A stretch of 32,554 nt of DNA from a bacterium (GTDB taxonomy: Bacteria; Cyanobacteriota; Vampirovibrionia; Gastranaerophilales; Gastranaerophilaceae). The stretch is taken from positions 1 through 32,554 of the forward strand of contig JAKSUQ010000022.1 in assembly GCA_024408855.1 (NCBI GenBank), in the 5' to 3' direction. Positions within the stretch are counted from its first letter, which is position 1. Each line of letters starts with the position of its first letter. A model generated the notes under the pieces. It made no database searches, had not been told where the DNA came from, and was given only the letters and a program-made list of their open reading frames with translations. The position numbers and the translations under genes were made by a program. Positions 10,176-29,273 of the stretch are shown here, piece after piece.

Positions 10176-13100
10176 TTGTTGATTTAATTTTATCAAATAG
10201 ATTTAAGAGTAGTTCATACATTTCATCAAATGACATGCCTGTTTGAGAAATTAAAAGTATTGATTTTCCATCGGTGCAGGAAGCCGGAGCTATTGTGAAT
10301 TTGATTTTTGATATAATTTCCCGATTAATGTTCTGTTTTAAAATATTCCATTCATATTGGGTAAACGGAGTATATATTCTTATATCATTACCACATTCTC
10401 TAATCACAGGTACATAGCAATCTGTTGCAATAAGTCTTATTTTTATTAATTTAATAAGATTTTCGACTTCATCCGGTATTCTTGAAAATCTGTCTTTCCA
10501 TTCAGAAATGATATAATCAAGTTCGGTTTCATTGTTAACATCTGAAAGCCTTTTGTATTCAATCATTTTTTGTTCGGTTGAACCTACCCATTCATCAGGT
10601 ATGAATGCTGTAATATTAATGTCGATAATTGTAGGTTTAGATTTATTAACAGTTTCACCTTTAAGTTCTTGAACTGTTTCCTCAAGAAGTTGGCAATATG
10701 TATCAAATCCGACATTTATCATATGTCCATGTTGTTTTGTGCCAAGTATATTACCGACTCCTCTTATTTCTACATCACGCATAGCAATTCTGTATCCGCT
10801 TCCCAATGAAGTAAATTCTTTTATTGCTTTTAATCTTTCGGAAGCATCCTGGGTAAGGTCTTTGTCTTTCTTATATAAGCAATAGCAATATGCTTGTTTT
10901 TCACTTCTTCCGACTCTGCCTCTTAGTTGATAAAGTTGAGCCAATCCAAATTTGTCCGCATCATGTACTATTATTGTATTGGCATTCGGTATGTCCAAAC
11001 CGTTTTCAATAATGGTTGTGCAAAGCAAAATGTCACTTTCATGCTTATCAAAACCAATAATTACATTTTCAAGTTCCTTTTCGCTCAGTTTTCCATGACC
11101 AATCGATATTCTTGCATTAGGAACAATTTTTTGAAGTTTTAGTGCAAATTCGTTTATTGTTTCTACTCTGTTATAGAGGTAAAAAATTTGTCCGTCTCTG
11201 TCAAGTTCGTTTGTTATAGCGTTTTTTATAATTTGTTCATTATATTCGCCGACATAAGTTTTTATAGGAAGTCTGTTTTGTGGTGGTGTGTTGATTATAG
11301 AAATATCTTTAATTCCTGACAACGACATATAAAGTGTTCTTGGGATAGGAGTTGCAGACATTGAGATTATATCAATATTTTCCCGAAATTCTTTCAATTT
11401 TTCTTTATGTCTTACTCCAAATCTGTGTTCTTCATCAATTACAAGTAATCCTAAATCTTTAAAAACTATATTATCTTGAAGCAATTTATGAGTAGCAATA
11501 ACCACATCACACTTTCCGGTTGCTAAATTTTTGAGGGTTTCCTTTTGTTCTTTTGCACTTCTAAACCTGCAAAGCAATTCTACATTAACTCCAAAAGGTT
11601 TAAATCGGTCCAGTACGGTTTGATAATGTTGAAGTGCTAAAATAGTTGTTGGTACGATTACAGCTACTTGTTTTAATGAATTTACGGCTTTAAACATTGC
11701 ACGCATCGCAACTTCAGTTTTGCCAAAGCCAACATCACCGCAAATTAATCTGTCCATAGGAGAAGAATTTTCCATATCAGATTTTATTTCATTAATAGCT
11801 TTTGCTTGATCAGGAGTCTCAATATATTCAAATGCTTCTTCCATTTCAAGCTGCATAGGAGTATCTTCTGCAAAAGCAATTCCTTCTTGCATTTTTCTTC
11901 TTGCATATAGTCTTAAAAGATCGTAAGCGACACTTTCAACCTCTTTTTTTACTCTTGTTTTTGTATTTTCCCAATCAGAGCCCCCCATTCTGGACAATTT
12001 TGGTTTTATTTGTCCGGAACCTCTGTAACGGCACAACATATTAATTTGTTCAGCTGGAATATGTAATTTGTCTTTGTTTGCGTATTCAATAGTTAAATAA
12101 TCTTTAAGTTGACCATCAATCTCTTGTTTAGTGAGTCCTATATATATACCAACACCATGAACCGTATGAACAACATATTCACCGGATTTTATATCATTAA
12201 TATTTTCTATATATTCAGGTTTTGCCTTATATTTAGACTTTTTGCCCGACGGTATATCTTTTTGTCGTTTGTTAAAAAGTTCTCTGTCTGTTATTACAAG
12301 AATTTTGCCGTCTGACATTTCTGTTCCGGATGAATTTATACAGCTTATGTATTGCGGAGAAAATATTTGATATTCAGACAAAACCTCTTTAACCCGTTCT
12401 TTAAAATCCGTTGCAATTATAATTTGATAATCCTTGTGATTTAATATATATTCTGCGACTTTATCCATATCGGCATCAAATATTGGTATTGAAGAAGAAT
12501 TAATATCAATAATTTCGGCAGCTTCATCCGATAAAAAATTATTTAATGAAATTTTCTGAAATTTTATCAATTTTTCATATATTTCATTAAAAGAGAAATG
12601 ATTAAGTTCTCGAAGCGGCTCAATTTGATTGAGTTTAAGCGCTTCATTAAAAGCGTTATCAGATACTTCCGTAACTTGTTTTAATTTGGAACTAATTTCA
12701 ACGTATTCATCATAGACAATTATTGCGTCATTAAAAGAATCTAAAATATTTATCAGTTTGTTATTAAAATACGATTGATAAACTCCGATCCCCTCAAAAT
12801 AGCCTTCTTCTTCAAATTTTTCTTTCAGTTCGGGGGAAAACTCCTCGGGTGAATTTTGAGGTAAAACAAATTTATAAAGCGGAAGAATTTCCACTTTGTC
12901 AATTTTTTCAATTGATTTTTGTGTTTCATTATTAAAAAATCTTATGTCAACAATTTCATCCCCCCAAAACTCAATCCTTACAGGATTTTGATGAAGTGCA
13001 AATATATCAGAGATATCCCCTCGTATTGAAAATTCTCCGATATCCGATACCATTGTTGCCCGTCTGTAACCTAATTCAGATAACTTATTAAGTAAATCTT

Positions 13101-13518
13101 TTTGTGAGATATTATCTCCAATTTTTAAATCCAATTTGTTATTCTCAAAAAATTCCAGAGTCGGAAATTTTTCGCACAAAACTTTCACCGGAATTATTGT
13201 TATTTTTTCAGGATTTCTGATTATATCGACTTGTCTTTGATAATCATACAAATCATTTTGCAATGTTTCGTACAATGAAATGCTTGTGTAGGGCATAATG
13301 TTGGATTTTATTTCAAAAATTTTTTCCAGATCTGCTTGGTAGCGTAATCCGTTTTGTTCGGTAGAAGTCAAAAATAAAATTGGTTTTGTTGAGTATTTAT
13401 TAATATAATTTAAAATCCACAACTTACTAAACGAAGTTAATCCTGTTAATGTAAAACTTCGATTGGTATTAATATTGCGGACAAATTTATTAAAAAAAGA
13501 ACACTTATCAGGTTTCAT
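10159..13518 (-). CDS. mfd: transcription-repair coupling factor Mfd
   Basis: The 1119-residue protein has the full Mfd layout: a UvrB-like N-terminal module (about 1-340) without helicase motifs, a middle linker, the RNA-polymerase-interacting domain (about 445-510, with VVHTVHGVGIYIG), a RecG-like translocase with Walker A GDVGFGKT (about 594-601), the DEEH box (about 697-700) and SATPIPRTLYMSL, the TRG region, and a C-terminal domain. Mfd removes stalled RNA polymerase from lesions and recruits UvrA. It is the last gene of murA-(RWYD gene)-mfd; its ATG overlaps the preceding stop by 4 nt. Confidence 0.97.
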   Translation of the reverse strand: MKPDKCSFFNKFVRNINTNRSFTLTGLTSFSKLWILNYINKYSTKPILFLTSTEQNGLRYQADLEKIFEIKSNIMPYTSISLYETLQNDLYDYQRQVDIIRNPEKITIIPVKVLCEKFPTLEFFENNKLDLKIGDNISQKDLLNKLSELGYRRATMVSDIGEFSIRGDISDIFALHQNPVRIEFWGDEIVDIRFFNNETQKSIEKIDKVEILPLYKFVLPQNSPEEFSPELKEKFEEEGYFEGIGVYQSYFNNKLINILDSFNDAIIVYDEYVEISSKLKQVTEVSDNAFNEALKLNQIEPLRELNHFSFNEIYEKLIKFQKISLNNFLSDEAAEIIDINSSSIPIFDADMDKVAEYILNHKDYQIIIATDFKERVKEVLSEYQIFSPQYISCINSSGTEMSDGKILVITDRELFNKRQKDIPSGKKSKYKAKPEYIENINDIKSGEYVVHTVHGVGIYIGLTKQEIDGQLKDYLTIEYANKDKLHIPAEQINMLCRYRGSGQIKPKLSRMGGSDWENTKTRVKKEVESVAYDLLRLYARRKMQEGIAFAEDTPMQLEMEEAFEYIETPDQAKAINEIKSDMENSSPMDRLICGDVGFGKTEVAMRAMFKAVNSLKQVAVIVPTTILALQHYQTVLDRFKPFGVNVELLCRFRSAKEQKETLKNLATGKCDVVIATHKLLQDNIVFKDLGLLVIDEEHRFGVRHKEKLKEFRENIDIISMSATPIPRTLYMSLSGIKDISIINTPPQNRLPIKTYVGEYNEQIIKNAITNELDRDGQIFYLYNRVETINEFALKLQKIVPNARISIGHGKLSEKELENVIIGFDKHESDILLCTTIIENGLDIPNANTIIVHDADKFGLAQLYQLRGRVGRSEKQAYCYCLYKKDKDLTQDASERLKAIKEFTSLGSGYRIAMRDVEIRGVGNILGTKQHGHMINVGFDTYCQLLEETVQELKGETVNKSKPTIIDINITAFIPDEWVGSTEQKMIEYKRLSDVNNETELDYIISEWKDRFSRIPDEVENLIKLIKIRLIATDCYVPVIRECGNDIRIYTPFTQYEWNILKQNINREIISKIKFTIAPASCTDGKSILLISQTGMSFDEMYELLLNLFDKIKSTISRYH

Positions 13519-13850
13519 TCTTTAAAATTCGGGCTTTCGTATTCAATTCCCATTTCTCTTATTGCAGCAATAAACCTCTCTGCACAGGAGTGTTGAACTT
13601 CAGGCGGAACGACTCTTAAAATTTCAACTGTTCTGGAAATAATGGGATCTTTATCGTACCATCTTGCACCATTAACAGGTTTTACTAAATCATAAAATCT
13701 GTCCAGCGCCTCTTTGGATACCTTTTGCTCCAATTTATCCAAGAAAATAACCGCATGCTCTCTCAATTCATCCTGATAATTTTTCAAAAGCTCAATAACT
13801 TCCATTAATTTAGGATCATGATCATACCATCTCTTATAAACGGGACTCAT
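13515..13850 (-). CDS. small protein with two RWYD-x-DP repeats
   Basis: This 111-residue protein contains two copies of a roughly 35-residue unit beginning RWYD-[HK]-DP (Trp8 and Trp64). Each is followed by a predicted helix pair with L-x-x-x-[IV]-E-[IL]-L and a second helix about 15 residues on. The same unit occurs twice in the gene at 30822-31232, so this is a small family in this genome. I do not recognise a named domain. There is no signal peptide or membrane segment, so it is cytoplasmic. Translation starts inside the end of murA (17-nt overlap) behind a GGGGGT ribosome-binding site, and its stop overlaps the mfd start, so it is tightly coupled to cell-wall and repair genes. Confidence 0.8.
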   Translation of the reverse strand: MSPVYKRWYDHDPKLMEVIELLKNYQDELREHAVIFLDKLEQKVSKEALDRFYDLVKPVNGARWYDKDPIISRTVEILRVVPPEVQHSCAERFIAAIREMGIEYESPNFKE

Positions 13851-18465: not shown

Positions 18466-18927
18466 ATGAGAGTACAATCAGTTCAATCATCAAAGTGTAG
18501 TTTTAACGGTGGATATGCATTGAAAAAAAGTGTATCAAAGGAAACGGGAGTATCTTATTATAACAAAGTAAACTACAAGTTGCATGAATTTGTTTATCAT
18601 CCGTTCGAAAATGAAACGGCTGAACAAATCGCAAATGCAATTAAGTCTAACTTTCGAGGTCGTTCATTTTATTTAGTGGAAAAGGAGCACGGACATAGAG
18701 ACGGTTTGTATTATCAGATGAATCGTGTTGTGTTGGGTTCAAAAATAAAACCATCCGACAATCTTGAGAAATTAGGATTAACCGAAGAGCCGATTGCCGG
18801 AATCTTAAATGACGATGCTTTTTATGAAGTTTATAACAATAACCAATATGCGACCATGGATGTTGAGGACTTAGATGATAAAAGAGTTATTGAAATTGCA
18901 ACCAAAGGAGGTCTTTTGACGTTATAA
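18466..18927 (+). CDS. small protein with N-terminal CSFNGG motif, unknown function
   Basis: This 153-residue protein is not one I recognise. The ATG at 18466 follows AGAGGAG at 5-nt spacing, which rules out the earlier in-frame Met at 18445. Its first 20 residues are polar and contain C-S-F-N-G-G, matching the F-[KN]-[SGA] motif seen near the N-termini of other proteins in this region. The rest is a compact alpha/beta domain (residues about 30-153), with no membrane segment and no obvious catalytic set, although H and E are clustered at VEKEHGHRDG. It is the first gene of the repeat-rich accessory region. Confidence 0.65.
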   Translation: MRVQSVQSSKCSFNGGYALKKSVSKETGVSYYNKVNYKLHEFVYHPFENETAEQIANAIKSNFRGRSFYLVEKEHGHRDGLYYQMNRVVLGSKIKPSDNLEKLGLTEEPIAGILNDDAFYEVYNNNQYATMDVEDLDDKRVIEIATKGGLLTL

Positions 18928-19352
18928 CATACAATTTTTATTAACAAAATTTAAATGTTTTTTCCATTTTGGATATTTCAATTGAATTCTTCATTAAGTA
19001 TAAGGTTCATAATTGTTGCAAGAGTTGGAAAAGTTTGGTGCAAATAGTTGGATTAAAACTGTTGATATTATAAATCAAGTTTAAATTTTCTCTGTATTTT
19101 GAGTTGTAGGTTAGAAGTGGGAAAAACAACGGTTATTTAAAATGTTTTCAATGCAAGATTTTGTGCATATTTTCGTACGGCACATGCACAGTTTGCACAG
19201 TTTTATTTTTACAAAAATTAACAGCAACTTGTTTTGTCATGTTTGTACGATGAGTAAACAACACTTGTATTTTATACGGGTTTATATTACCATGTACGTC
19301 TCAAAATGTGTATTTATTTGAATTTATAATTTGCAAACAAAAGGAGATATAG
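18928..19352. other. AT-rich intergenic spacer without a gene
   Basis: This 425-bp stretch has no credible reading frame. It contains an inverted repeat, TGTGCAT (19162-19168) and ATGCACA (19184-19190), separated by 15 nt. An AAAGGAG ribosome-binding site for the next gene lies at its right end. No convincing promoter pair was found. Confidence 0.6.
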
Positions 19353-20216
19353 ATGGCAGTTAGATTTAATCCGATAAAAAGTACCGTACAGCCGGGTATT
19401 CGAAATGTTATACCATCAAAGTTTTCGACAAGGTCAGGAAAATTAATTAAACCCGCAATTCTTGCATTGGGATTGATGACGTCATCTTGTGTTAACGACT
19501 ATAAAGATGTTGATAAACTTGATTTCTATCAAGGAGTTGATAAAAAAGAATTATTGAAAAAAGGTTTTCAAGTTGATATTTTGAATAATGTAAATAAACC
19601 TGCTCCGAATGTATATTCATTTAATGTCGGCTTTCGAACTCTGTGTTCGCTTGGGGCATATAACGGTGATATTTATGGAGCAACCAATATAATAGTAGAT
19701 AAAAATGATGAAAATCATATTTACGGAAAAATTGATTTAAATCATATTGCCCATGGATGGAAACGCTCTTATAGAAAAGATAGCTTTGGAAGGTACGTTC
19801 CTTATGATGACAGAACTCATTATTATGAAGATTACGGAAATTACAGATTTGATGCCAATTTGGTACAAGAAGAAAATTCCAAAGATTATGAAATTAAGCT
19901 GAAAGTATTTAAGAATACGAATATTGAGCCTGAAATGATTAATATTTGCGTCGGTGATAACGATATTCAAATAAACGGGAAAAAATATTCAAAAGAAGAA
20001 ATTGAACAATTTAAAGAAATTCTTCTTAAACGTACAGATGAAAAGATTACTTTGGATGGGAAAAAACCAAATCATGAAATTGTTAGGGCACACAGAGCAT
20101 TGGCTATTCTTTTAGGGTTTTTCCCAACAGCACTTGTTGCAATTTTTGTCGGTTCGCTTATATCGTCCAAAGTTGATGAATTACGCAACGAACAACAAAA
20201 TGAAAATGACGAATAA
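19353..20216 (+). CDS. membrane-associated protein, unknown function
   Basis: This 287-residue protein is not one I recognise. An AAAGGAG ribosome-binding site precedes the ATG. The first 30 residues are basic and polar, followed by a hydrophobic segment ending in LMTSSC (about 35-46), which resembles a lipobox but lacks the usual Leu at -3. A hydrophilic middle domain (about 50-240) follows, with a Tyr/Asp-rich stretch at about 135-160, then a transmembrane helix near the C-terminus (about 245-268) and a charged tail. The long polar stretch before the first hydrophobic segment is odd for a normal signal peptide and resembles the metallopeptidase at 22085. Confidence 0.65.
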   Translation: MAVRFNPIKSTVQPGIRNVIPSKFSTRSGKLIKPAILALGLMTSSCVNDYKDVDKLDFYQGVDKKELLKKGFQVDILNNVNKPAPNVYSFNVGFRTLCSLGAYNGDIYGATNIIVDKNDENHIYGKIDLNHIAHGWKRSYRKDSFGRYVPYDDRTHYYEDYGNYRFDANLVQEENSKDYEIKLKVFKNTNIEPEMINICVGDNDIQINGKKYSKEEIEQFKEILLKRTDEKITLDGKKPNHEIVRAHRALAILLGFFPTALVAIFVGSLISSKVDELRNEQQNENDE

Positions 20217-20293
20217 TTTGTATTTGTTAAAAGATTCAGCAAATTCATACGTTGAGGATAATATTCTCTAAATTATTCTCAAATACTATATAT

Positions 20294-20371
20294 AAATTAA
20301 TACCCGATTTAATGATTAATAACAGTTAATGTGATTATTGTGTAAATAATTTGTAATAATCAGGCAATTTT
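20294..20371. repeat. composite repeat, uninterrupted copy (A1 + C1)
   Basis: Part A (20294-20335) recurs at 20627-20668 with about 38 of 42 positions identical. Part C (20343-20371) recurs at 22008-22036 with 27 of 29 identical. Here A and C are adjacent. The second copies lie on either side of the calpain gene at 20700-21899. Confidence 0.75.
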
Positions 20372-20626
20372 GGGGTAAATGTAACGGAATGCAAAGACGA
20401 ATTTTTAGGGGTTCTAACATGGTGGAAACCCTTGTAAAATCTGCTATATAATATAAACTTCCGACTTAATTTTTACTGGTTGGTTTAAAATGTCCGACAT
20501 GGTTAATATGTCATGTCTATTTATAGCTACAATTCAAAACACACCGTAAACACAGGCAGAATACGCATTTTAACCGTACAAACGCAACTGAGGTGTTAAA
20601 TTACACTTTTTCTGTATTGTCCTTGT

Positions 20627-20668
20627 AAATTAATACTCGATTTGATGATTAATAACAGTTAGTTTGAT
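20627..20668. repeat. repeat part A, second copy
   Basis: The 42-bp segment matches 20294-20335 at about 38 positions. It ends directly at the hairpin that follows the calpain gene. Confidence 0.75.
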
Positions 20669-20697
20669 GATTTCGTTGGGTTAAACCCCCAATCATC
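20666..20697 (-). terminator. nested hairpin just 3' of the calpain gene
   Basis: GATGATT (20666-20672) pairs with AATCATC (20691-20697), enclosing TTGGG and CCCAA arms. It starts 3 bp after the stop codon of the minus-strand calpain gene and has no long T tract, so it may be a weak terminator or an mRNA-stabilising REP-like hairpin. Confidence 0.45.
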
Positions 20698-20699
20698 CA

Positions 20700-21899
20700 C
20701 TAAATTTTAACAGGAATTTGTTCAAAACCATCTTTGTATTTTTCGTAATCGTCATCTATATTTACTACTGTAACATTATTTATCTGATTTAAGAAATCGC
20801 CAAGCGATTTTTTAATTAAAATATCACTGTCATGTGGATTTATAAGTATAATATTTGTTATGTTATTATTTTCATCTTTTTCTATATTTTTAATAACGTA
20901 TGCGTGTTCTGACAAATTATCAAAAGAGTTTATATCCTTTTCATCATATAATTCTTTTTTAAACCAATTTCTTGATTCTTTGAATGAACATGTAAGAGCA
21001 GTATCATTATTTTCACTTAATTTGTACAACAGCTTTTTAAATGTGTCCTGAGAGTATGTGTTAAACCAATAGTCTTGAGTATTTTTATAACCAAATTTCA
21101 TTGCTTCACTTGCTTCAGAGAGCTTTTGTTCCGTTTCTTTTATTTTTTCCTCTTTTGATTGAGCTAAACAAAAACCAAAACCTTTTTCCCCAGTTAATAA
21201 GTATTGAGCGCTTATTTCTCCAATTCCAGAAGAGCCCTCTAAAACGTCACTTTCTCTTACTATATTTCCTTTTTCAACCTCTTGTCGTAAATAGCGTTCT
21301 GTTGCTAATTCAATCAATAAAACATCCAAATCTCCAATAGAATAATATTCTTCTCGTGCTTTATCAATATCTTCTTGATTAATTATCGTTTCAAAATTTA
21401 CTCCGTTTAATTTTACGGTATATGTCCCTTCATCATTATTATCTAAAATGCTATCTTTTATGGCTTTTTTACCCCATGAGGTTAAAGAGAGACTCTTAAT
21501 TCCGGATAACAACCAGCAATCAGACTTTTCTAATTGAAAAAATGATTCAATTTGTCCATTGGATTCGTTCAACCTAGATTTTTTACTATAGTAAGTAATG
21601 TTTTCTATGAATTCATTAAATTTTCTAACGGACATTTTTTTATCCATAGGGGTAGATTTGAGGAATTTTCTTATTTCTTTTTTGCTATACTGACCGTCAT
21701 TATTTATATCAGCTTTTTTGATATCTGATATAAGTAATTTGAGTTCGTCGCCTTGTAAAATATCGTCTGGATTAACATTATAATGGTCAAAAATAGAAAT
21801 TTCCTTTGAAGAAATTGAATCTCTATCAATTCTCATTACGTCTGTATCGAAAGACATCAATTTTGATATGTTTTCATTAAGTTTTGTTTTTAAAAACAT
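20700..21899 (-). CDS. EF-hand protein with calpain-type (C2) cysteine protease domain
   Basis: The 399-residue protein has an N-terminal helical region with one canonical EF-hand Ca2+ loop, DINNDGQYSKKE (64-75), preceded by a degenerate one. A papain-fold calpain domain follows, with Gln122, Cys128 (in SDCWLLSG), His332 (EHAYVI) and Asn354 (LINPHD) in the expected order and spacing; the usual Gly residues around Q-G-x-x-G-D-C-W are replaced. No signal peptide or membrane segment is present. Ca2+ control is inferred from the fused EF-hand. A GAGG ribosome-binding site lies before the ATG. The protein is a distant homologue of the calpain at 27720-29273. Confidence 0.85.
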   Translation of the reverse strand: MFLKTKLNENISKLMSFDTDVMRIDRDSISSKEISIFDHYNVNPDDILQGDELKLLISDIKKADINNDGQYSKKEIRKFLKSTPMDKKMSVRKFNEFIENITYYSKKSRLNESNGQIESFFQLEKSDCWLLSGIKSLSLTSWGKKAIKDSILDNNDEGTYTVKLNGVNFETIINQEDIDKAREEYYSIGDLDVLLIELATERYLRQEVEKGNIVRESDVLEGSSGIGEISAQYLLTGEKGFGFCLAQSKEEKIKETEQKLSEASEAMKFGYKNTQDYWFNTYSQDTFKKLLYKLSENNDTALTCSFKESRNWFKKELYDEKDINSFDNLSEHAYVIKNIEKDENNNITNIILINPHDSDILIKKSLGDFLNQINNVTVVNIDDDYEKYKDGFEQIPVKI

Positions 21900-21948
21900 A
21901 TAATTCCTCGTATATTTATATAAAGTTTTTTTAGGTCATAAATTTGCC

Positions 21949-21976
21949 CCAAATATTAATTTTTATTAATATTTGG
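21949..21976. repeat. perfect inverted repeat upstream of calpain 1
   Basis: CCAAATATTAAT (21949-21960) and ATTAATATTTGG (21965-21976) are perfect 12-bp arms around TTTT. They lie about 50 bp upstream of the calpain start and could be an operator or a 5'-UTR hairpin. Confidence 0.7.
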
Positions 21977-22002
21977 CAAAAATTCTATATTTAAAAATTT
22001 TT

Positions 22003-22036
22003 TATTGTAAACAATTTGTAATTATCAGGCAATTTT
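22003..22036. repeat. repeat part C, second copy
   Basis: The core at 22008-22036 matches 20343-20371 at 27 of 29 positions. The TATTG preceding it also matches the sequence between parts A and C in the uninterrupted copy. Confidence 0.7.
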
Positions 22037-22084
22037 TTTGCTTTACAATACTTTATATAAGTAGTAGAAGTTCATAGGAAAATT

Positions 22085-23503
22085 ATGTCTGTAGGCACAA
22101 ATCTTCAAACAATAAATTACAATAATATCAATATTTAGCCCAAAGTACGAACAAATTTTAAGGCACAAACTGTTTCTGTTCAGAATTATCCACCCGATAC
22201 AGTTGAAATTGCCGGTAAAAAGAAAAACTTTAGTATTGGAGCAAAGATTGCAATAGGAGTTGGTACAACACTTGCTGTGTTGGTTGGTGGTGCTTATGCA
22301 ATATCAAAACATCAGACATATAAATTGCAAAAATTATATAAAGAAAAACTTGTTCCAAAGATTTTTGATAAAGAGCTTACATTTACGGAAGCAAAAACAA
22401 AAGAAGATGCTTTAAAATATGCGAAAGATATTTTAGGTGTAAAAAATATTGATGAGCATATGACTCTTGAAGCATTAAACTATACAAATCATGGAATTAC
22501 AGATGTTGTAAATAAAAATATAGGACAAGAAGTATTTATACCTAGAAGCTATTTATATGATGATATAGATGGACTTGCTCATGTCGTAAGTAGCATTAAA
22601 GATAAAAACTTTGGTGAATTAGCAATTAATAAAAAATTTTTTGATAATGAATTTTTAACAAAAGAATTAGACAAACAATTCAGTTTACGTGATTTTGCAA
22701 AAAATATAAAGGAAGATGCAAAGGAATCTGCAAAAAAAGCAGAAAACGGATTACATTCACACTTTGCATCAGAAAGCAAATTAGTTGACTTACTAGACAG
22801 ATATAAAGCAAATCCTAATAATTTATCAGTAGCTGAAAAACGTACTTTGTTATATTCATTCGGAAGAACATCAAAACTAAATGCATTGTTTAAGTTTGAT
22901 TATATTAAATTTGCAGAAAAGAATAAAGACAAAATAAAAATAGACATTGAAGAATTTAAAAAATTAACTAGAGCAGAACAAAGAAATTCACTAGATAAAT
23001 ATTTAAAAGATAATAAAATGTCCATGGATTATTACAGATATCTACCGGCGGATAATGGTATTTCAACAATTTATCATGAAATGGGACACTTGCAGGATTT
23101 TGCAAAAAATCTTAAAGAGATAGACTTAAAATTTTGGAAATTGCCAACTTGGAAAGAATCTAAAGCTGCTGTAGAAGCAAAAAAAGCAGGTAAGACTGTA
23201 GAAGATAGAAGTCGTGTTGATGAAATTGAAAACAGATGGGGTGGAACTACTTATAGTGGATTCAAAGATTTATTAAAAAATAATCCCGAAAAATTTAAAA
23301 AATTATACCCGGATTTATACAAGCATCTTAAAGATGAGAACATTCAAAAAACTACAATGAAAGTATCTTGGTATGCAGGCACAAGCATAGGCGAATTCAT
23401 AGCAGAAGTTTATAAAATGATGATATCAGGAAAAGAAATCCCGGAAGATGTTATGAAATTATACAAGAAATATAATGGACCTTTACCAAATGGTTTTAAA
23501 TAG
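22085..23503 (+). pseudogene. membrane-anchored zincin metallopeptidase with an in-frame amber codon
   Basis: An ATG at 22085 behind AGGA opens a frame of 473 codons, except for one TAG at 22136-22138 (codon 18). Beyond it come the N-terminal motif T-N-F-K-A-Q, a transmembrane helix (about residues 54-72), a helical region, and a zinc-protease motif HEMGH with the downstream SIGEFIAEVYK segment typical of HExxH zincins of the lethal-factor-like group. After the TAG the frame has no ATG, GTG or TTG until a GTG at 22277 inside the transmembrane segment, without a ribosome-binding site. So either the gene is broken by a CAG-to-TAG change, or UAG is read through. The rest of the frame is undamaged, suggesting a recent or tolerated event. 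Confidence 0.65.
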
Positions 23504-23523
23504 ATGATTTAAAATTTAGAGTA

Positions 23524-23781
23524 TTAAATATCTTCTAAATCTTTTGAAAGTGAACGCAAACTTTCTTCTATCTTTTTATAGATATTCTCATCCTTAAATT
23601 TATTTAGTAATTCTTCTTTTTTCCCAAAACCAATAACAATAATTTTTCTATAAGGTTCTTTTCCGTATGTTGGTAAAATATATGTTTCATTAAATTTTCC
23701 TTCAAATTTATCTTCTTCGATAGCATATTTATTAGCAAGTTCAGAAGATGTGATTTCATCTTGAAACTTGTTTATAACAAG
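23524..23781 (-). pseudogene. remnant of leucyl aminopeptidase (M17) N-terminal domain
   Basis: On the minus strand an open stretch of about 85 codons without a start codon reads like the N-terminal domain of M17 leucyl aminopeptidases: FEGKFNETYILPTYGK, then KIIVIGFGKKEELLNKF, then a helix ending at a TAA (23524-23526). A stop (23782-23784) closes its 5' side, and the catalytic domain that should follow is absent. It is convergent with the metallopeptidase gene. I read it as a decayed fragment left by recombination. Confidence 0.55.
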
Positions 23782-23889
23782 CTATTTTATAACAAAACTT
23801 ATTTGTTGTTAATTTTTAAATAGCAAAAAAAATATTTTATCGTTTTATATATATATATATCATCATTATATCCTATGGAGATCTCCTTA

Positions 23890-25152
23890 ATGAAACTAAC
23901 GGATCCGTTATCTATACATATCTGCCATCACCCTGTGAAAAAAAACGGATTGAAAATTTGGCAGCTTGCTGATTTTCCGCATACATACGGAAATAAACTT
24001 GCATCTGAATCAAATGAAATGTATGGTAAAGGTTGTAATGGTGTAGTTTCAATATTAAAAGCCTTTGGCGAAGAAACAAACATGGTCGTTAAAAGATTTC
24101 GCCCTAAAGAAGGACAAAAACAGCGAGAAGCACTAAAAGAAGTATATGCACTACTTGCATTATTGGTAAATGATATCGTCATGGCTTCAGGTATCCAAAT
24201 GGGATGTATTGCATATAAAAACAAAGATGGTGATTATGTTCTTATATCTCAAAAGATAAATGGACAAAAACCGGATCCGCATAATAATCGGTTCAATGAT
24301 AAAAATCTGAATCAAATGGTGGCTGTTTTAGCAAAACTAGATACGCCGGATGTATACTGGAACATGAAAAAACCATTTAAAACACCTCGTAAAAACTCAC
24401 TTTTAATGCATTATGATTTAAAGCCGGGAAATGTTTTAATTTCTCAGGATAATTTTGGTGTTGTAGATTTTGAATACCTTGATTTTATTGAACCTCCTAG
24501 GTTTAAAATAAAAAAAGAAAAAAATTGGGGTATAATTGTCAATTATTCAGATATATCAGGTGTTCCATCAAACTTGAGGAATTTTGAGTATAGAACTTTG
24601 CTTCCGTATCTGATGAAATTAGAGCCAAAAGAAGCAAATAAATTATTTGTTCAATATTTGAAACATAAAAGTAATTACTACAACGATTTAAACATTCAAT
24701 ACCCTCGCGACAAACATTTTACAAAAATTATAAAGCTTCAACAAGCACATTGTAATATACTGAGCAAACCAACTCAAGATGTTATAAAATCCGAAGCAAT
24801 AAAAATTCAAATCGCCAGAGATATCTATCTTTTAAGTACCCATGCCCATGGTGAAAAAACTGAAATAAACTTAAATGAAATTAAACAATATATTATTGAT
24901 GCATTAAAATTTTTTGAATATAAATACGATTCTTGTTGTAACCAAGATGAAAAAACTTACTATATGGATTGTATTGAATTAATAAATATTTGGAAAAATA
25001 TCATACCAATTATTGACAATAATAACTTAGAGTCATTGGATTATTATAAAGATATCTCAGGTTGTAACAACAACGATAATAGTAGTAAATTAATTAAAAC
25101 TACATATACAGATAAACACCTACCAACGCTTGATGAAAAGGTAACCGGATAA
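23890..25152 (+). CDS. kinase-like protein (protein kinase / aminoglycoside-phosphotransferase fold)
   Basis: The 420-residue protein (from the ATG at 23890) has kinase landmarks in order: a Gly-rich loop GKGCNG (about 46-51), VVKRF with the ATP-binding Lys (about 68), the catalytic loop HYDLKPGNVLIS (about 174-185, Asp176, Asn181) and VVDFEYLDF in place of DFG (Asp193). The rest is helical and not recognised. The combination HYDLKPGN plus DFE suggests a small-molecule or atypical protein kinase. GGAG at 23877-23880 lies 9 nt before the chosen ATG; an earlier ATG at 23875 lacks a ribosome-binding site. The stop overlaps the HAD phosphatase start (TAATG). A TA-dinucleotide run at about 23846-23860 lies upstream. 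Confidence 0.75.
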   Translation: MKLTDPLSIHICHHPVKKNGLKIWQLADFPHTYGNKLASESNEMYGKGCNGVVSILKAFGEETNMVVKRFRPKEGQKQREALKEVYALLALLVNDIVMASGIQMGCIAYKNKDGDYVLISQKINGQKPDPHNNRFNDKNLNQMVAVLAKLDTPDVYWNMKKPFKTPRKNSLLMHYDLKPGNVLISQDNFGVVDFEYLDFIEPPRFKIKKEKNWGIIVNYSDISGVPSNLRNFEYRTLLPYLMKLEPKEANKLFVQYLKHKSNYYNDLNIQYPRDKHFTKIIKLQQAHCNILSKPTQDVIKSEAIKIQIARDIYLLSTHAHGEKTEINLNEIKQYIIDALKFFEYKYDSCCNQDEKTYYMDCIELINIWKNIIPIIDNNNLESLDYYKDISGCNNNDNSSKLIKTTYTDKHLPTLDEKVTG

Positions 25153-26090
25153 TGCAAATAATAACTACACCGTATCAAAATTATTCTATTTATAAAACAA
25201 ATTCTCAATGTATAAATTGTAAAAAAAACACTTTCAAATCTAAACATACAACTACAAAATACATTAATCAATTACCAAAAATACACTCAGATAAGGTAAC
25301 TACATTAGTCTCAGATTTTGACGGAACAATTAGAAACTACTATACAAATTCTGTTACAAAAGACACACAAACTGCGCTTAAAAACCTTATAAAAACCAAA
25401 GTTTCGGTAATAATTGCAACAGGACGTGTTAATAATGAGCTAAATTTAATCAAAGACTGTCTGGAAATTCAGCCGGAATATTATATATTAGGTCATGGCT
25501 CACATATAACAGATAAAGAGGGACACCTGTTATATAGCAAAACACTTACAGGTAATCAGGTCAAAGCTATAATAAATTATGGGAAAAAATACAAGCAGTT
25601 TCACCCTCACACAAAAATATACATTAAAGGAAAAGATTTTATTGAAGAAATAGACAACAGCAATAATATTGATTTAAACAATGTCTATTTGATAATGTTC
25701 AGAGAACCTCAATCTACGTCGTATCAAACCATAATGCCAATGTATAATAGTCTTCAATATAATCTGTCAAATCAGGGATTAAATATATTCACATCATCGC
25801 CAAGATGTTGCGAAATTGTTAATAATGATATAAACAAATGCGTTGCATTATCAAACCTTGCAAAGCAAATAAATTTAAAAATACCAAACATTGCTTTCAT
25901 TGCAGATGGGAATAATGATATTGATTTAATGAATTTTATAAGAAAACACAACGGCGTTTCTATTAGTATGGGAAATGCTTCTCAAGAATTATTATCTTGT
26001 GCTGAATATACAACAGATCACATATCTGATTCAGGTTTCGCAAAAGCAATAGATAATATAATCAAACTAAATGCAAATTTATCATATTAA
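25152..26090 (+). CDS. Cof-type HAD phosphatase with N-terminal extension
   Basis: The 312-residue protein begins with about 48 polar residues containing N-T-F-K-S (F28), then a HAD type IIB phosphatase: DFDGT (nucleophile Asp55, Asp57), IIATGR (motif II), a cap domain (about 110-235), NDINKCVAL with the motif III Lys, and ADGNNDIDLM (metal-binding Asp). This family dephosphorylates sugar phosphates and related metabolites; the substrate cannot be read. Overlap with the kinase gene by one base (TAATG) means coupled translation, so kinase and phosphatase probably act on the same or linked metabolites. It converges on the nucleotidyltransferase gene. Confidence 0.85.
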   Translation: MQIITTPYQNYSIYKTNSQCINCKKNTFKSKHTTTKYINQLPKIHSDKVTTLVSDFDGTIRNYYTNSVTKDTQTALKNLIKTKVSVIIATGRVNNELNLIKDCLEIQPEYYILGHGSHITDKEGHLLYSKTLTGNQVKAIINYGKKYKQFHPHTKIYIKGKDFIEEIDNSNNIDLNNVYLIMFREPQSTSYQTIMPMYNSLQYNLSNQGLNIFTSSPRCCEIVNNDINKCVALSNLAKQINLKIPNIAFIADGNNDIDLMNFIRKHNGVSISMGNASQELLSCAEYTTDHISDSGFAKAIDNIIKLNANLSY

Positions 26091-26118
26091 ATTAACGCGA
26101 AAACACTTTTTACAAAAA

Positions 26119-27192
26119 TTAATACAAAATATTAATTCCATCAATATTACAGTTCTTAATAGGTTTACTTTTATCACTGCAAAAATCTATACTTTTTTGC
26201 TCTTGATTAACTCTTAAATTAATTTCATTCTGTAGCTCTTTCGCATTTTCTACACTTAATTGGTTAAATATATTATTTGTTTTCAATGCTAACAAGAATT
26301 TATAAAAACCCTCAGTTTCTCCAACATCATGCCAGGTATTTGTCATTATTATTTTAGGATTTGTCTGAATATACTCCGGAAACCAATCTTTCGTTTTAGA
26401 ACATACATATTCTATAGATTTTCCAAAATCATATATTTCTACATCATTTTTCTTTATTGGATTGCTTCCGGATTTTAGCTCATCAATCAAGTGTCCCATT
26501 ACATCTTTGCTAAAATAACAACACCCCGTATTGACTATATTTTTCCCACCAATTGCATACTGACAAGCATTTTCATAAGAAGGTTTTTCTATAAAATCTT
26601 TTATAATACCATTTTTGTTAACTACAACTATACCATATCTTGAATCAACTTCTTTTGGGGTTCTTTGTGCTCCAAGCACGGCACAGTGAGATGTACTGTC
26701 TTGGACTGCTTTTAATAAATCATCAGTCAATTTATCAGTTATTCCGCAAAACACACTATCGCCACTACAAATAACAGTATCCTTAATAGGATTACCTGAC
26801 ATGTAGTAATCAATGACGCCACCGAAAGAACCATTTGGTTTATTTGATAACAATGGTTGTACACATTTGTTATCTATAAAAGGTAATGACAACATCATCA
26901 CAAAATCAATCGCATAAAATAGATTTTTTCCTGTTGGAAGTGGTATATTTATTTTATTGTAGTCCCCGATTGTATGTGCAATTTTAAAACGAGACCCTGC
27001 ACCTGCAGCAGGAATAAAAAAATTTGCATCAATTTTGGGCTGATTTTTACAAAATGGCAATATTTCCTTATTAAAATGTGTTAAAACGGTATCAACAATT
27101 TTTTGACCTTTATTTTGTTGAGATAACGGAACAAAACAAGACTTAAACTGTACATTATTCGTATTTAATAAATCTACATTACAAACACGCAT
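26119..27192 (-). CDS. sugar-nucleotidyltransferase-like protein with N-terminal F-K-S motif
   Basis: The 357-residue protein carries an N-terminal polar stretch with V-Q-F-K-S (F16), then a nucleotidyltransferase domain of the NTP_transferase group. It has PAAGAGSRF (about 61-69, a G-x-G-[ST]-R loop), CSGDSVF with the metal-binding Asp, and the product-side motifs RYGIVVV and IKDFIEKPS. Such enzymes join a sugar or alcohol phosphate to a nucleoside triphosphate. The last 60 residues are an unassigned Asn/Lys-rich tail. There is no Shine-Dalgarno sequence before the ATG. With the facing kinase and HAD genes it may form one pathway, but this is inference. Confidence 0.8.
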   Translation of the reverse strand: MRVCNVDLLNTNNVQFKSCFVPLSQQNKGQKIVDTVLTHFNKEILPFCKNQPKIDANFFIPAAGAGSRFKIAHTIGDYNKINIPLPTGKNLFYAIDFVMMLSLPFIDNKCVQPLLSNKPNGSFGGVIDYYMSGNPIKDTVICSGDSVFCGITDKLTDDLLKAVQDSTSHCAVLGAQRTPKEVDSRYGIVVVNKNGIIKDFIEKPSYENACQYAIGGKNIVNTGCCYFSKDVMGHLIDELKSGSNPIKKNDVEIYDFGKSIEYVCSKTKDWFPEYIQTNPKIIMTNTWHDVGETEGFYKFLLALKTNNIFNQLSVENAKELQNEINLRVNQEQKSIDFCSDKSKPIKNCNIDGINILY

Positions 27193-27338
27193 ATTAATAT
27201 AAAACCCATAAAAAATAATTTTGACTTAGATAAGTGCTAAAATAATAAATCAGACATCCACACGTCATTATATTTTATTTTAATCAAAATTTTACTTAAA
27301 ATCCAAAATAAAACAGTCGAAATGCAATAGTTTGTAGG

Positions 27339-27364
27339 GTGGGCAGAAGTGAAACAATGCCCAC
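27339..27364. repeat. REP-like hairpin (GTGGGCA/TGCCCAC)
   Basis: GTGGGCA (27339-27345) pairs with TGCCCAC (27358-27364). The unit is GC-rich in an AT-rich spacer. It resembles the widespread GTAGGGTGGGCA...TGCCCAC interspersed elements known from memory of many bacterial genomes. Confidence 0.6.
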
Positions 27365-27410
27365 GCCGACAATTCAAGAACTTTTGACAGACTATATAAA
27401 TCTCAATATT

Positions 27411-27550
27411 TTAGTGCAAAAATGTGCAAAAATAGTGTATTTTGTGCAAGTTTAAAATTACAAATTGTTAGCTAGTCGGATACGGCTGAAATTCAAATAT
27501 ATTATAATTTTACGCTAATAGTGTCTTCAATAATTTCCGACTTAATATAC
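27411..27550. repeat. left direct repeat flanking calpain 2
   Basis: The core 27411-27494 contains AAAAATGTGCAA, AGTGTATTTTGTGCAAG, TTTAAAATT and CGGATACGGCT. These recur in the same order and orientation at 29594-29690. CCGACTTAATATAC (27537-27550) likewise matches CCGACTCAGTATAC at 29732-29745. Confidence 0.8.
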
Positions 27551-27614
27551 TGTAAAAGAACACATGAAATGACTTTTTTTGACGGGTAAAATGACTTTTT
27601 CGGAAATATGAATG

Positions 27615-27637
27615 TTACAATTTTACCAAAATTGTAA
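27615..27637. repeat. perfect inverted repeat upstream of calpain 2
   Basis: TTACAATTTT (27615-27624) and AAAATTGTAA (27628-27637) are perfect 10-bp arms around ACC, about 80 bp before the calpain ATG. It may be an operator or hairpin. Confidence 0.7.
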
Positions 27638-27719
27638 AGATTTCACAAAATCTCCTAAAGTTTTCGAAAAAAATGCCGAAATACATATAACAAAATAAAA
27701 TTAACTTAAGGAGTAAACT

Positions 27720-29273
27720 ATGACGGATTTCAAATGGTATGGAAATGAAGAACATAAAGACTATTATTTTGACAATTATGATGGAAGTATGGTTTTAAAA
27801 TCAAATGATAAAAAGACACAAGATGTCTATAACAAAATTTTATCAATTTTTGATGATAATCATAACAATAAGTTGGATGCCAATGAGATAAAATCGCTAT
27901 GGGACAATGTTGTATCAGCAGATGAAGATAGAGATGGTACAATTACAGAAGATGAAGCTAAAAAGGCTTTAAAAAATAATCCGATTCTTTCTAATTTAAA
28001 AATTAGTGCAAATGAATTATTAAAATCTATAGATTCAATTTATAAAACCATTGATAAATCTTTTGAAAAAACAAAGGCTAATGTTCATAACAAATTAATG
28101 AAAGATATTCAAAAGAAATATCCAAATGATAAATATTCAGTCAATATTCAATATAATGATAAAGATTATTCAGAAATAACAATTACTTCAAAAAACAATA
28201 ATGATTACACTATTTATAAAATTTTTGAAAATGGTAACTATCAAATTTATACTAGAATTGGTGACAATGAAAAAGCTGAAAACTACGATAAAAATGGAAA
28301 TATGACTTCATATAGTAAACTAAATAATGAAACACATTGCTGGGAAGAAGGTCATCCTCTAGCAGATGCAATTAATGGTGAAATCACAGCAAAAAATAAA
28401 CTTGGCTTACCAACGACGGGCAAAGATTTAGAAAAATATATTAAGCAAATTAATCCTAAAAATATAATTCAAATTTTTGATGCTTACAAGGATACTTATG
28501 GAGAAACCTTGTTAGATGCAATCAATGAAGAATGGGGCTTAGATAACAAAATTAAAGAAAGGTTGCTAAAACATTTAAACAAATGTTGCATTGAATCAGA
28601 TTATTGGAAATATAACAAACCAAATTGTAAAATTGATGAAGATTTTTATCAAGGTCAAATAGGTGATTGTTGGTATTTAGCAACAATTTCTGCAATTCAA
28701 CGTTCCCCGAAAGGGCAAGAAATTCTAAATAACATGATAACAGATAATAAGGATGGCACTTATACAGTAAAATTTAAAGGTGCAGATAAAAGTTATACTG
28801 TTAGTGCTTTAGAATTAATGAGTAAAAGTAAGTACGCAGAGGGAGATTTTGATGTTAGAATATTGGAACTTGCTGCTAAAAAACATTATTTCGTAAGGGG
28901 AATTAATGGTGGTAATCCAGCTAAAGCATATGAACTATTACTAGGAACTGGAGATAAGTGGAAAAATATAGCTAGAAACTATTCTTCAAAACCTAGTCCA
29001 CAAAAAATAAAAGAACTGTTAAACAATAAAAATATCGTTATGACAGCAACTATTCATCCATTCTCAAAATTATGGGGGATGATAGCAAAAAGCATACCGG
29101 AAGATGCTGAATATAAAGATGATGTTGCAACTAGTCATGCTTATGCAGTTCATGATATAGATGATAAAAATATATATTTAAAAAATCCTTGGCGCACTGA
29201 TCAAACGATTGCAATTCCGTTAGACATATTTGAAGAATATTGGGGTAGTGTAACTTATACTGAGATTGAATAA
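27720..29273 (+). CDS. EF-hand pair with calpain-type (C2) cysteine protease domain
   Basis: The 517-residue protein has two canonical EF-hand Ca2+ loops, DDNHNNKLDANE (45-56) and DEDRDGTITEDE (68-79), a helical and beta-rich middle region (about 100-300), and a calpain catalytic core with the full signature: YQGQIGDCWYLA (Gln311, Cys317), SHAYAV (His473) and LKNPW (Asn489). All catalytic residues are intact. There is no signal peptide or transmembrane helix. Calpains are Ca2+-dependent regulatory proteases best known from eukaryotes; bacterial members are scattered. AAGGAG lies 6 nt before the ATG. The gene stands alone between direct repeats about 2.2 kb apart, suggesting mobility as a unit. 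Confidence 0.92.
   Translation: MTDFKWYGNEEHKDYYFDNYDGSMVLKSNDKKTQDVYNKILSIFDDNHNNKLDANEIKSLWDNVVSADEDRDGTITEDEAKKALKNNPILSNLKISANELLKSIDSIYKTIDKSFEKTKANVHNKLMKDIQKKYPNDKYSVNIQYNDKDYSEITITSKNNNDYTIYKIFENGNYQIYTRIGDNEKAENYDKNGNMTSYSKLNNETHCWEEGHPLADAINGEITAKNKLGLPTTGKDLEKYIKQINPKNIIQIFDAYKDTYGETLLDAINEEWGLDNKIKERLLKHLNKCCIESDYWKYNKPNCKIDEDFYQGQIGDCWYLATISAIQRSPKGQEILNNMITDNKDGTYTVKFKGADKSYTVSALELMSKSKYAEGDFDVRILELAAKKHYFVRGINGGNPAKAYELLLGTGDKWKNIARNYSSKPSPQKIKELLNNKNIVMTATIHPFSKLWGMIAKSIPEDAEYKDDVATSHAYAVHDIDDKNIYLKNPWRTDQTIAIPLDIFEEYWGSVTYTEIE

What the first reader, a model, noticed from the sequence alone, without database searches (positions are those of the whole stretch)
18466..27192. 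Shared N-terminal F-[KN]-[SGA] motif in unrelated accessory proteins
Four otherwise unrelated products carry a polar, low-complexity N-terminus with a near-identical short motif: C-S-F-N-G (18466 gene), T-N-F-K-A (metallopeptidase at 22085), N-T-F-K-S (HAD phosphatase, 25152) and V-Q-F-K-S (nucleotidyltransferase, 27192). The folds behind it differ: small alpha/beta protein, membrane zincin, HAD, nucleotidyltransferase. In the HAD and nucleotidyltransferase the motif lies in an extension that the catalytic domain does not need. The stretch is not a Sec signal. A common tag on different enzymes suggests a sorting, secretion, compartment or processing signal not described to my knowledge; I recall similar starts in other Gastranaerophilales hypothetical proteins.
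Basis: partly seen in the sequence, partly recalled or inferred. Interest (0 to 1): 0.75.

Follow-up and report, generated by a model that had tools for sequence, protein, structure and literature searches.

The report
Shared N-terminal tag in gut cyanobacteria
Dozens of unrelated proteins in each genome of a gut-dwelling, non-photosynthetic order of cyanobacteria start with the same two-part, unfolded peptide tag, which looks like an undescribed address label and may send them out through a flagellum-type secretion gate that every sampled genome of the order keeps.

Summary
Three of the four N-termini are intact. The fourth (22085) has an in-frame TAG stop between its start and the motif, but orthologues of that metallopeptidase keep the tag in an open frame. 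The tag is wider and more structured than described. It begins M-[QNKR]-[IV]-x-x-[IV], continues with an N/Q/S/P-rich linker, and ends [VPI]-[SN]-F-[KGR]-[GAS] at residue 10-61. F-[KR]-[GAS] is the second most enriched of 7,349 N-terminal tripeptide classes tested. A model trained on this genome alone finds tags in held-out genomes of the order (20/708 proteins), none in 514 proteins from outside it, and 1 in 1,867 internal stretches. Orthologues keep the tag with synonymous codon changes, so selection acts on the peptide. Sec, VirB4-type T4SS and contractile injection are excluded or unlikely. Every sampled tag-bearing genome carries a second, flagellar-type T3S gate, including genera that have lost flagellin. 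Best explanation: a targeting tag, most likely an export signal for that gate. The tag itself is well supported; the route is inferred, at about 0.4. Against it: no gene linkage, no match to the known flagellar docking motif, and two tagged proteins that also carry Sec-type signals.

The parts
18466..18510 (+). Tag of the 153-aa protein 18466-18927: MRVQSVQSSKCSFNG (F at residue 13)
   Evidence: read; model score 9.7; strong SD upstream; no Pfam family
22085..22165 (+). Tag of the membrane metallopeptidase frame, interrupted: ATG 22085, TAG 22136-22138, N-F-K-A at 22154-22165
   Evidence: orthologues with open frame and tag-like start; HEMGH zincin motif in 22277-23503
25152..25241 (+). Tag of the HAD phosphatase 25152-26090: residues 1-30, F28-K-S
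   Evidence: Hydrolase_3 matches residues 52-300 only; tag kept in the 81% identical orthologue L163:5607-6545
27139..27192 (-). Tag of the nucleotidyltransferase 26119-27192: residues 1-18, F16-K-S
   Evidence: F16 invariant in 16 homologues; residues 1-16 disordered in the model
18466..29273 (.). Accessory region that holds the tagged genes, GC 0.29 against 0.33-0.34 in the flanks; its other genes (19353, 20700, 23875, 27720) are untagged

Best explanation
The shared start is a two-anchor, intrinsically disordered N-terminal targeting tag: a short non-polar start (M-x-[IV]-x-x-[IV]), a polar linker of free length, and a second anchor [VPI]-[SN]-F-[KGR]-[GAS]. SHOWN: the tag recurs on many unrelated proteins of the order, is absent from the sampled sister orders and from internal sequence, is conserved between orthologues at the peptide level, and is disordered in a predicted model of one carrier. 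INFERRED: a cytosolic receptor reads it. INFERRED, less sure: the receptor is the export apparatus, or a chaperone, of the order's second flagellar-type type III secretion system (FliE/F/H, FlhA2, FlhB2, FliO/P/Q/R), which is kept where flagellin is lost; tagged proteins would be its non-structural substrates. These would include orphan proteins, hydrolases, sugar-metabolism enzymes diverged from untagged housekeeping copies, and proteins with weakly hydrophobic membrane segments.
For: Tag real and clade-wide. Peptide-level conservation. Disordered and outside the fold. Composition is that expected of T3S signals (N, Q, S, P up; D, E, L down; mean net charge +1.8) and no hydrophobic N-terminus in 0/77 strict tags against 362/1747 untagged. 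The system-2 gate (FlhA2, FliP2, with FlhB2 in nearly all) is in all sampled genomes of the order, also in genera without flagellin, and tag frequency does not depend on the flagellar system 1 (p=0.65). VirB4 absent in 17/17, contractile sheath absent in 14/17 including G000 and G059. Membrane segments of tagged proteins are fewer (25% against 42%) and less hydrophobic (median 1.76 against 2.02, p=0.025), as reported for T3S membrane substrates (PMC6110835). A tagged 5'-nucleotidase (a family that is usually extracytoplasmic; own knowledge) has no Sec signal. Tagged starch-synthase-like, GH77 and AGPase-fold enzymes recall secreted glycogen enzymes of Chlamydia (PMC3722199, PMC4829429; titles and abstracts).
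Against: Tagged genes are not enriched near system-2 genes (9/181 against 85/1258). The second anchor does not match the flagellar gate recognition motif Fxxx-hydrophobic (F+4 hydrophobic 23/66, background 0.31) and 28/66 tags are shorter than the 19-residue minimum spacing. Two G044 tagged proteins carry a lipobox or a Sec-like signal behind the tag. Several carriers need nucleotides and would be idle outside a cell. The f9 genomes have a T3S gate but no detectable tag. No chaperone, needle tip or translocon was found or systematically sought.
Confidence: 0.4

Rival explanations
1. An intracellular sorting or docking tag: the peptide ties enzymes, lipoprotein precursors and membrane proteins to one cytoplasmic partner (a scaffold, inclusion or granule, chaperone or protease adaptor), with no export through system 2.
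For: Carriers include enzymes that need cytosolic nucleotides (nucleotidyltransferase, starch-synthase-like, AAA). Sugar and alpha-glucan enzymes recur among the carriers. Tags precede Sec-type signals in two proteins, where they can act only in the cytosol. No linkage to secretion genes.
Against: Carriers are mostly orphan and divergent accessory proteins rather than one pathway; a 5'-nucleotidase without Sec signal is tagged; no shell or scaffold protein was identified.
Confidence: 0.3
2. A removable N-terminal propeptide: a protease recognises [SN]-F-x-[GAS] and trims the tag to mature or activate the protein.
For: The motif sits at the boundary between the disordered part and the fold (nucleotidyltransferase), has small residues after F, and the linker is free in length.
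Against: The start anchor M-x-[IV]-x-x-[IV] would not be needed for cutting some 20-50 residues further on; no candidate protease was sought; no proteomic data were at hand.
Confidence: 0.12
3. A by-product of translation initiation: A-rich, weakly structured 5' codons give N/K/I/S/Q-rich starts, and F-[KR]-small is a hitch-hiker.
For: Starts in AT-rich genomes are generally rich in K, N and I.
Against: The second anchor lies at residue 10-61, far from the start; its position in the sequence varies while the motif stays; codons vary while residues are kept; AT-rich Prochlorococcus-like and sister-order genomes lack it.
Confidence: 0.08
4. Chance resemblance of a few short tripeptides picked by eye.
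For: Single forms such as F-N-G are not enriched on their own (17 against 15.6), and start-codon errors create some false positives (TsaD).
Against: All composition, position, held-out and orthologue tests.
Confidence: 0.03

Closest known systems
Export signals of early flagellar rod/hook subunits (small non-polar residues near the N-terminus plus gate recognition motif; FlgD, FlgE; PMC8983047)
   Same: Disordered N-terminus, non-polar residues at positions 3-7, a second phenylalanine-led anchor further on, variable linker; a flagellar-type gate is present in every tag-bearing genome sampled
   Different: No Fxxx-hydrophobic pattern; 28/66 tags are shorter than the 19-residue minimum; the carriers are enzymes and orphans, not rod/hook subunits
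N-terminal secretion signals of type III effectors
   Same: Unstructured, polar, poor in acidic residues and leucine, on otherwise unrelated proteins; less hydrophobic membrane segments (PMC6110835)
   Different: Known T3S effector signals have no fixed sequence motif (own knowledge); here a motif is conserved across an order; no translocon was identified
Motifs in extended n-regions of Sec signals (YSIRK-G/S, ESPR)
   Same: A conserved motif ahead of a Sec-type signal in two G044 proteins
   Different: Most tagged proteins have no Sec signal at all; the motif differs (own knowledge)
Encapsulation peptides of bacterial microcompartments
   Same: Short N-terminal extension on enzymes, joined to the fold by a flexible linker
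   Different: Known ones form amphipathic helices (own knowledge); this tag is N/S/Q/P-rich and modelled as disordered; no shell proteins were sought

Membership tests
Sec signal peptide | hydrophobic core within the first ~35 residues | tested here: not met
   0/77 strict tags against 362/1747 untagged proteins
Flagellar rod/hook export signal | gate recognition motif Fxxx-hydrophobic | tested here: not met
   F+4 hydrophobic in 23/66, background 0.31, p=0.6
Flagellar rod/hook export signal | at least 19 residues between the two signals | tested here: not met
   28/66 tags have F before residue 24; threshold from PMC8983047
Flagellar rod/hook export signal | small non-polar residues at positions 3-7 | tested here: met
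   position 3 I/V 62%, position 6 I/V 50% in the fitted model
Type III secretion substrate | a T3S export gate in the same genome | tested here: met
   FlhA2 and FliP2 in every sampled genome of the order, FlhB2 in nearly all
Type III secretion substrate | N-terminus needed and sufficient for export | not testable with these tools
   needs a reporter export assay
Type IV secretion substrate | VirB4-type ATPase in the genome | tested here: not met
   PF03135 0/17 genomes
Contractile injection system cargo | sheath protein in the genome | tested here: not met
   PF04984 absent in 14/17, including G000 and G059, which have tags
In-frame DNA repeat (such as palindromic elements) | conservation at the DNA level | tested here: not met
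   synonymous codon variation at F, K and A in the 16 nucleotidyltransferase homologues
Microcompartment encapsulation peptide | amphipathic helix and cognate shell proteins | not tested
   the tag is modelled as disordered in one carrier; shell proteins were not searched

The most novel reading that the evidence does not exclude
A sequence-defined, bipartite N-terminal secretion code that marks dozens of effector-like proteins per genome for a flagellin-less flagellar T3SS, kept throughout a whole order of gut cyanobacteria and used to deliver enzymes to neighbouring cells.
Probability: 0.25. Interest if true: 0.92.

Novelty: new variant of a known kind. Interest (0 to 1): 0.68.

Why it matters
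Three full-text searches on Gastranaerophilales or Melainabacteria with motif or secretion terms gave no paper whose title or abstract points to such a tag or to a type III secretion system in these bacteria. Earlier work read the leftover flagellar genes of non-motile members as too few for a flagellum (PMC4040986); here they form a conserved second export gate. If the tag is its signal, one simple sequence rule would list the secreted proteins of hundreds of uncultured gut species, most of them orphans, and would make the unknown host interaction of this order directly testable. If the tag instead serves a cytoplasmic partner, it is still a widespread bacterial address label that I have not seen described.

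Tried and rejected
De novo ungapped EM on all N-termini was dominated by helix-like E-L-L-K patterns and not informative, so discriminative counting replaced it. TsaD as a tagged housekeeping enzyme: rejected as a start-site error. CHAP and SLT proteins without Sec signals: their N-termini are not strict tags, so not used as evidence. FlgM: no hit over the cut-off in these genomes; a resemblance of tags to FlgM N-termini is recalled only, not tested. Searches of viral contigs and plasmids for carriers: none. Tags in other phyla could not be tested: the one genome-contig scan returned only relatives that look like this order. Gene starts come from my own simple caller, not from an annotation.
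Full report
WHAT WAS CLAIMED AND WHAT IS THERE. Four accessory products were said to share F-[KN]-[SGA] near a polar N-terminus. Three are intact and carry it: 18466 (F13-N-G), 25152 (F28-K-S) and 27192 minus (F16-K-S). At 22085 the frame has a TAG at 22136-22138 between the ATG and N-F-K-A; the next start in frame is GTG 22277, inside the membrane segment. The gene is therefore broken in this assembly, or an error lies there. Its orthologues in G033, G237, G071 and G396 have open frames with tag-like starts (for example MVNSTTNVNNTGIYSVNNPTVSLPTNFRGN and MSIQPLSISNANTVNRINFGNK). The neighbours 19353, 20700, 23875 and 27720 do not carry the tag.

MORE THAN CHANCE. In 539 proteins from 620 kb of this genome F[KR][GAS] at residues 8-60 is enriched 1.85-fold (p=1.5e-4) and [SNTAV]F[KRNG][GAS] 2.4-fold (p=2e-6); matched controls (L, Y, F-acidic, swapped order) are not. 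The motif co-occurs with an M-x-[IVL]-x-x-[IVL] start (odds ratio 4, p=7e-4), and this coupling vanishes in an internal window. Over 1,200 proteins of the order, F-[KR]-[GAS] ranks second of 7,349 degenerate tripeptides; the first, V-T-L, is probably inflated by nucleotidyltransferase homologues, which share Y-V-T-L-S, and the same homologues also add some F-K-A counts.

CONSENSUS. A two-anchor EM model fitted to 1,237 non-redundant proteins gives M-[QNKR]-[IV]-[NSL]-[SPN]-[IV]-[SNQ], a linker rich in Q, N, P, S and poor in L, D, E, G, and [VPI]-[SN]-F-[GKR]-[GAS]. Scores above 5 occur in 6.3% of proteins of the order, 0.19% of 514 proteins outside it and 0.23% of internal pseudo-N-termini. 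Some top scorers are low-complexity starts without a real F motif, so this is an upper bound; 77 of 114 candidates meet a strict motif rule. Trained on this genome only, the model finds 8/441 proteins of G059 and 12/267 of G044 (another family) against 0/514 outside and 1/1,867 internal (p=1.6e-5 and 8e-11). An independent DNA pattern (SD, ATG, [KQ][IV], F-[KR/Q]-small; frame not enforced) gives 364 matches against 56 for its reversed control in 132 genomes of the family, but 148 against 100 in 153 genomes of other classes of the phylum. The organism is most likely a member of Gastranaerophilales: carriers of the same nucleotidyltransferase come mostly from gut MAGs, several of them labelled Gastranaerophilales.

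SELECTION ACTS ON THE PEPTIDE. In 16 nucleotidyltransferase homologues the motif F is invariant, while its codons and those of K and A/G/S vary. Between this window and L163 the HAD phosphatase is 81% identical and keeps the MQIITT start and F-K while the linker changes. AlphaFold2 gives the nucleotidyltransferase a confident fold (mean pLDDT 83) with residues 1-16 below 50; the fold is of the AGPase/RmlA type, so the tag lies outside it.

WHO CARRIES IT. Starch-synthase-like glycosyltransferases in three genomes, nucleotidyltransferases, GH77, HAD, calcineurin-type phosphatases, a 5'-nucleotidase, AAA and FtsH-like proteins, RNase T, ankyrin repeats, an alpha/beta hydrolase and weak PARP-like matches; about half or more of the carriers that were scanned singly have no Pfam family. 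The usual GlgA, FtsH and simple nucleotidyltransferases of these bacteria score as untagged, so tagged copies are divergent paralogues. Tagged proteins have fewer and slightly less hydrophobic membrane segments. Two G044 carriers have a lipobox or a Sec-like signal after the tag.

WHICH MACHINE. Two T3S gates exist. System 1 (FlhA1, with flagellin next to it on C16 in this genome) is confined to some genera. System 2 (FliE, FliF, FliH, FlhA2 on C16; FliP2 and FliR2 on C22; FlhB2 on C67) is found in the sampled genomes of the order, including genera where flagellin is gone (G219 is an exception that lacks FlhA1 but keeps a flagellin; FlhB2 was not seen in three assemblies). Tag frequency does not depend on system 1 (p=0.65). 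VirB4 is absent from 17/17 genomes and a contractile sheath from 14/17. System 2 is thus the only dedicated secretion gate found here that is present wherever the tag is. That is correlation within one clade. Tagged genes are not clustered at system-2 loci, and the tag fails the gate-recognition-motif test, so it is not filed as a flagellar rod/hook signal.

JUDGEMENT. That the tag is real and reads as a targeting element is well supported (my estimates 0.95 and 0.75). That it serves system 2 is the best single reading (0.4). Intracellular sorting is the main rival (0.3).

Noticed in passing
window 22136-22138: In-frame TAG stop between ATG 22085 and the tag motif of the membrane metallopeptidase; orthologues are open here, so this copy is broken or the base is an error.
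   Followed up: partly
G000:C16:29082-35107, C22:17803-20132, C67:49250-50326 (L090, L164, L165): A second flagellar-type T3S system (FliE-FliF-FliH-FlhA2, FliP2/R2, FlhB2) kept in the order, also in genera without flagellin; earlier papers describe only an incomplete flagellar gene set.
   Followed up: partly
L099:10724-12202 and homologues listed: A soluble ~490-aa protein that holds only the cytosolic part of FlhA (FHIPEP positions 309-653), found in most genomes of the family; a free-standing FlhA-C is unusual.
   Followed up: no
L176:9848-12343 and 12487-13659: Neighbouring related G044 proteins whose tag is followed, some 50 residues on, by a Sec-like signal (VKA-AD) and a lipobox (LTAC) respectively: very long n-regions.
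   Followed up: partly
window 19353-20216: Probable lipoprotein with a ~45-residue polar N-terminal extension before its hydrophobic stretch (LMTSSC); it scores as untagged.
   Followed up: no
window 20700-21899 (-) and 27720-29273 (+): Two calpain-like cysteine proteases (the second with EF-hand-like repeats; the first by SDCWLL and EHAY motifs only) flank the tagged genes and are untagged.
   Followed up: no
L182:4026-5501 (-): Three tandem paralogues in G044 all start MLNSINN[ST]SPSFGA while their bodies are 33-60% identical.
   Followed up: no
L162:7703-8995 (-): A protein whose second anchor is repeated in tandem (MTGLQSNFRSNQ ... VTGLQPNFRSNQ).
   Followed up: no
L167:8914-12020: Two tagged genes, one a 5'-nucleotidase, sit directly beside flhB2 in G059; in G033 the metallopeptidase orthologue also lies about 1 kb from flhB2, though tagged genes overall show no linkage to system 2.
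   Followed up: partly
window 23875-27192: A kinase-like (APH/Pkinase), HAD phosphatase and nucleotidyltransferase lie together, as in nucleotide-sugar or phosphocholine activation cassettes; the HAD and nucleotidyltransferase pair recurs in L163.
   Followed up: no
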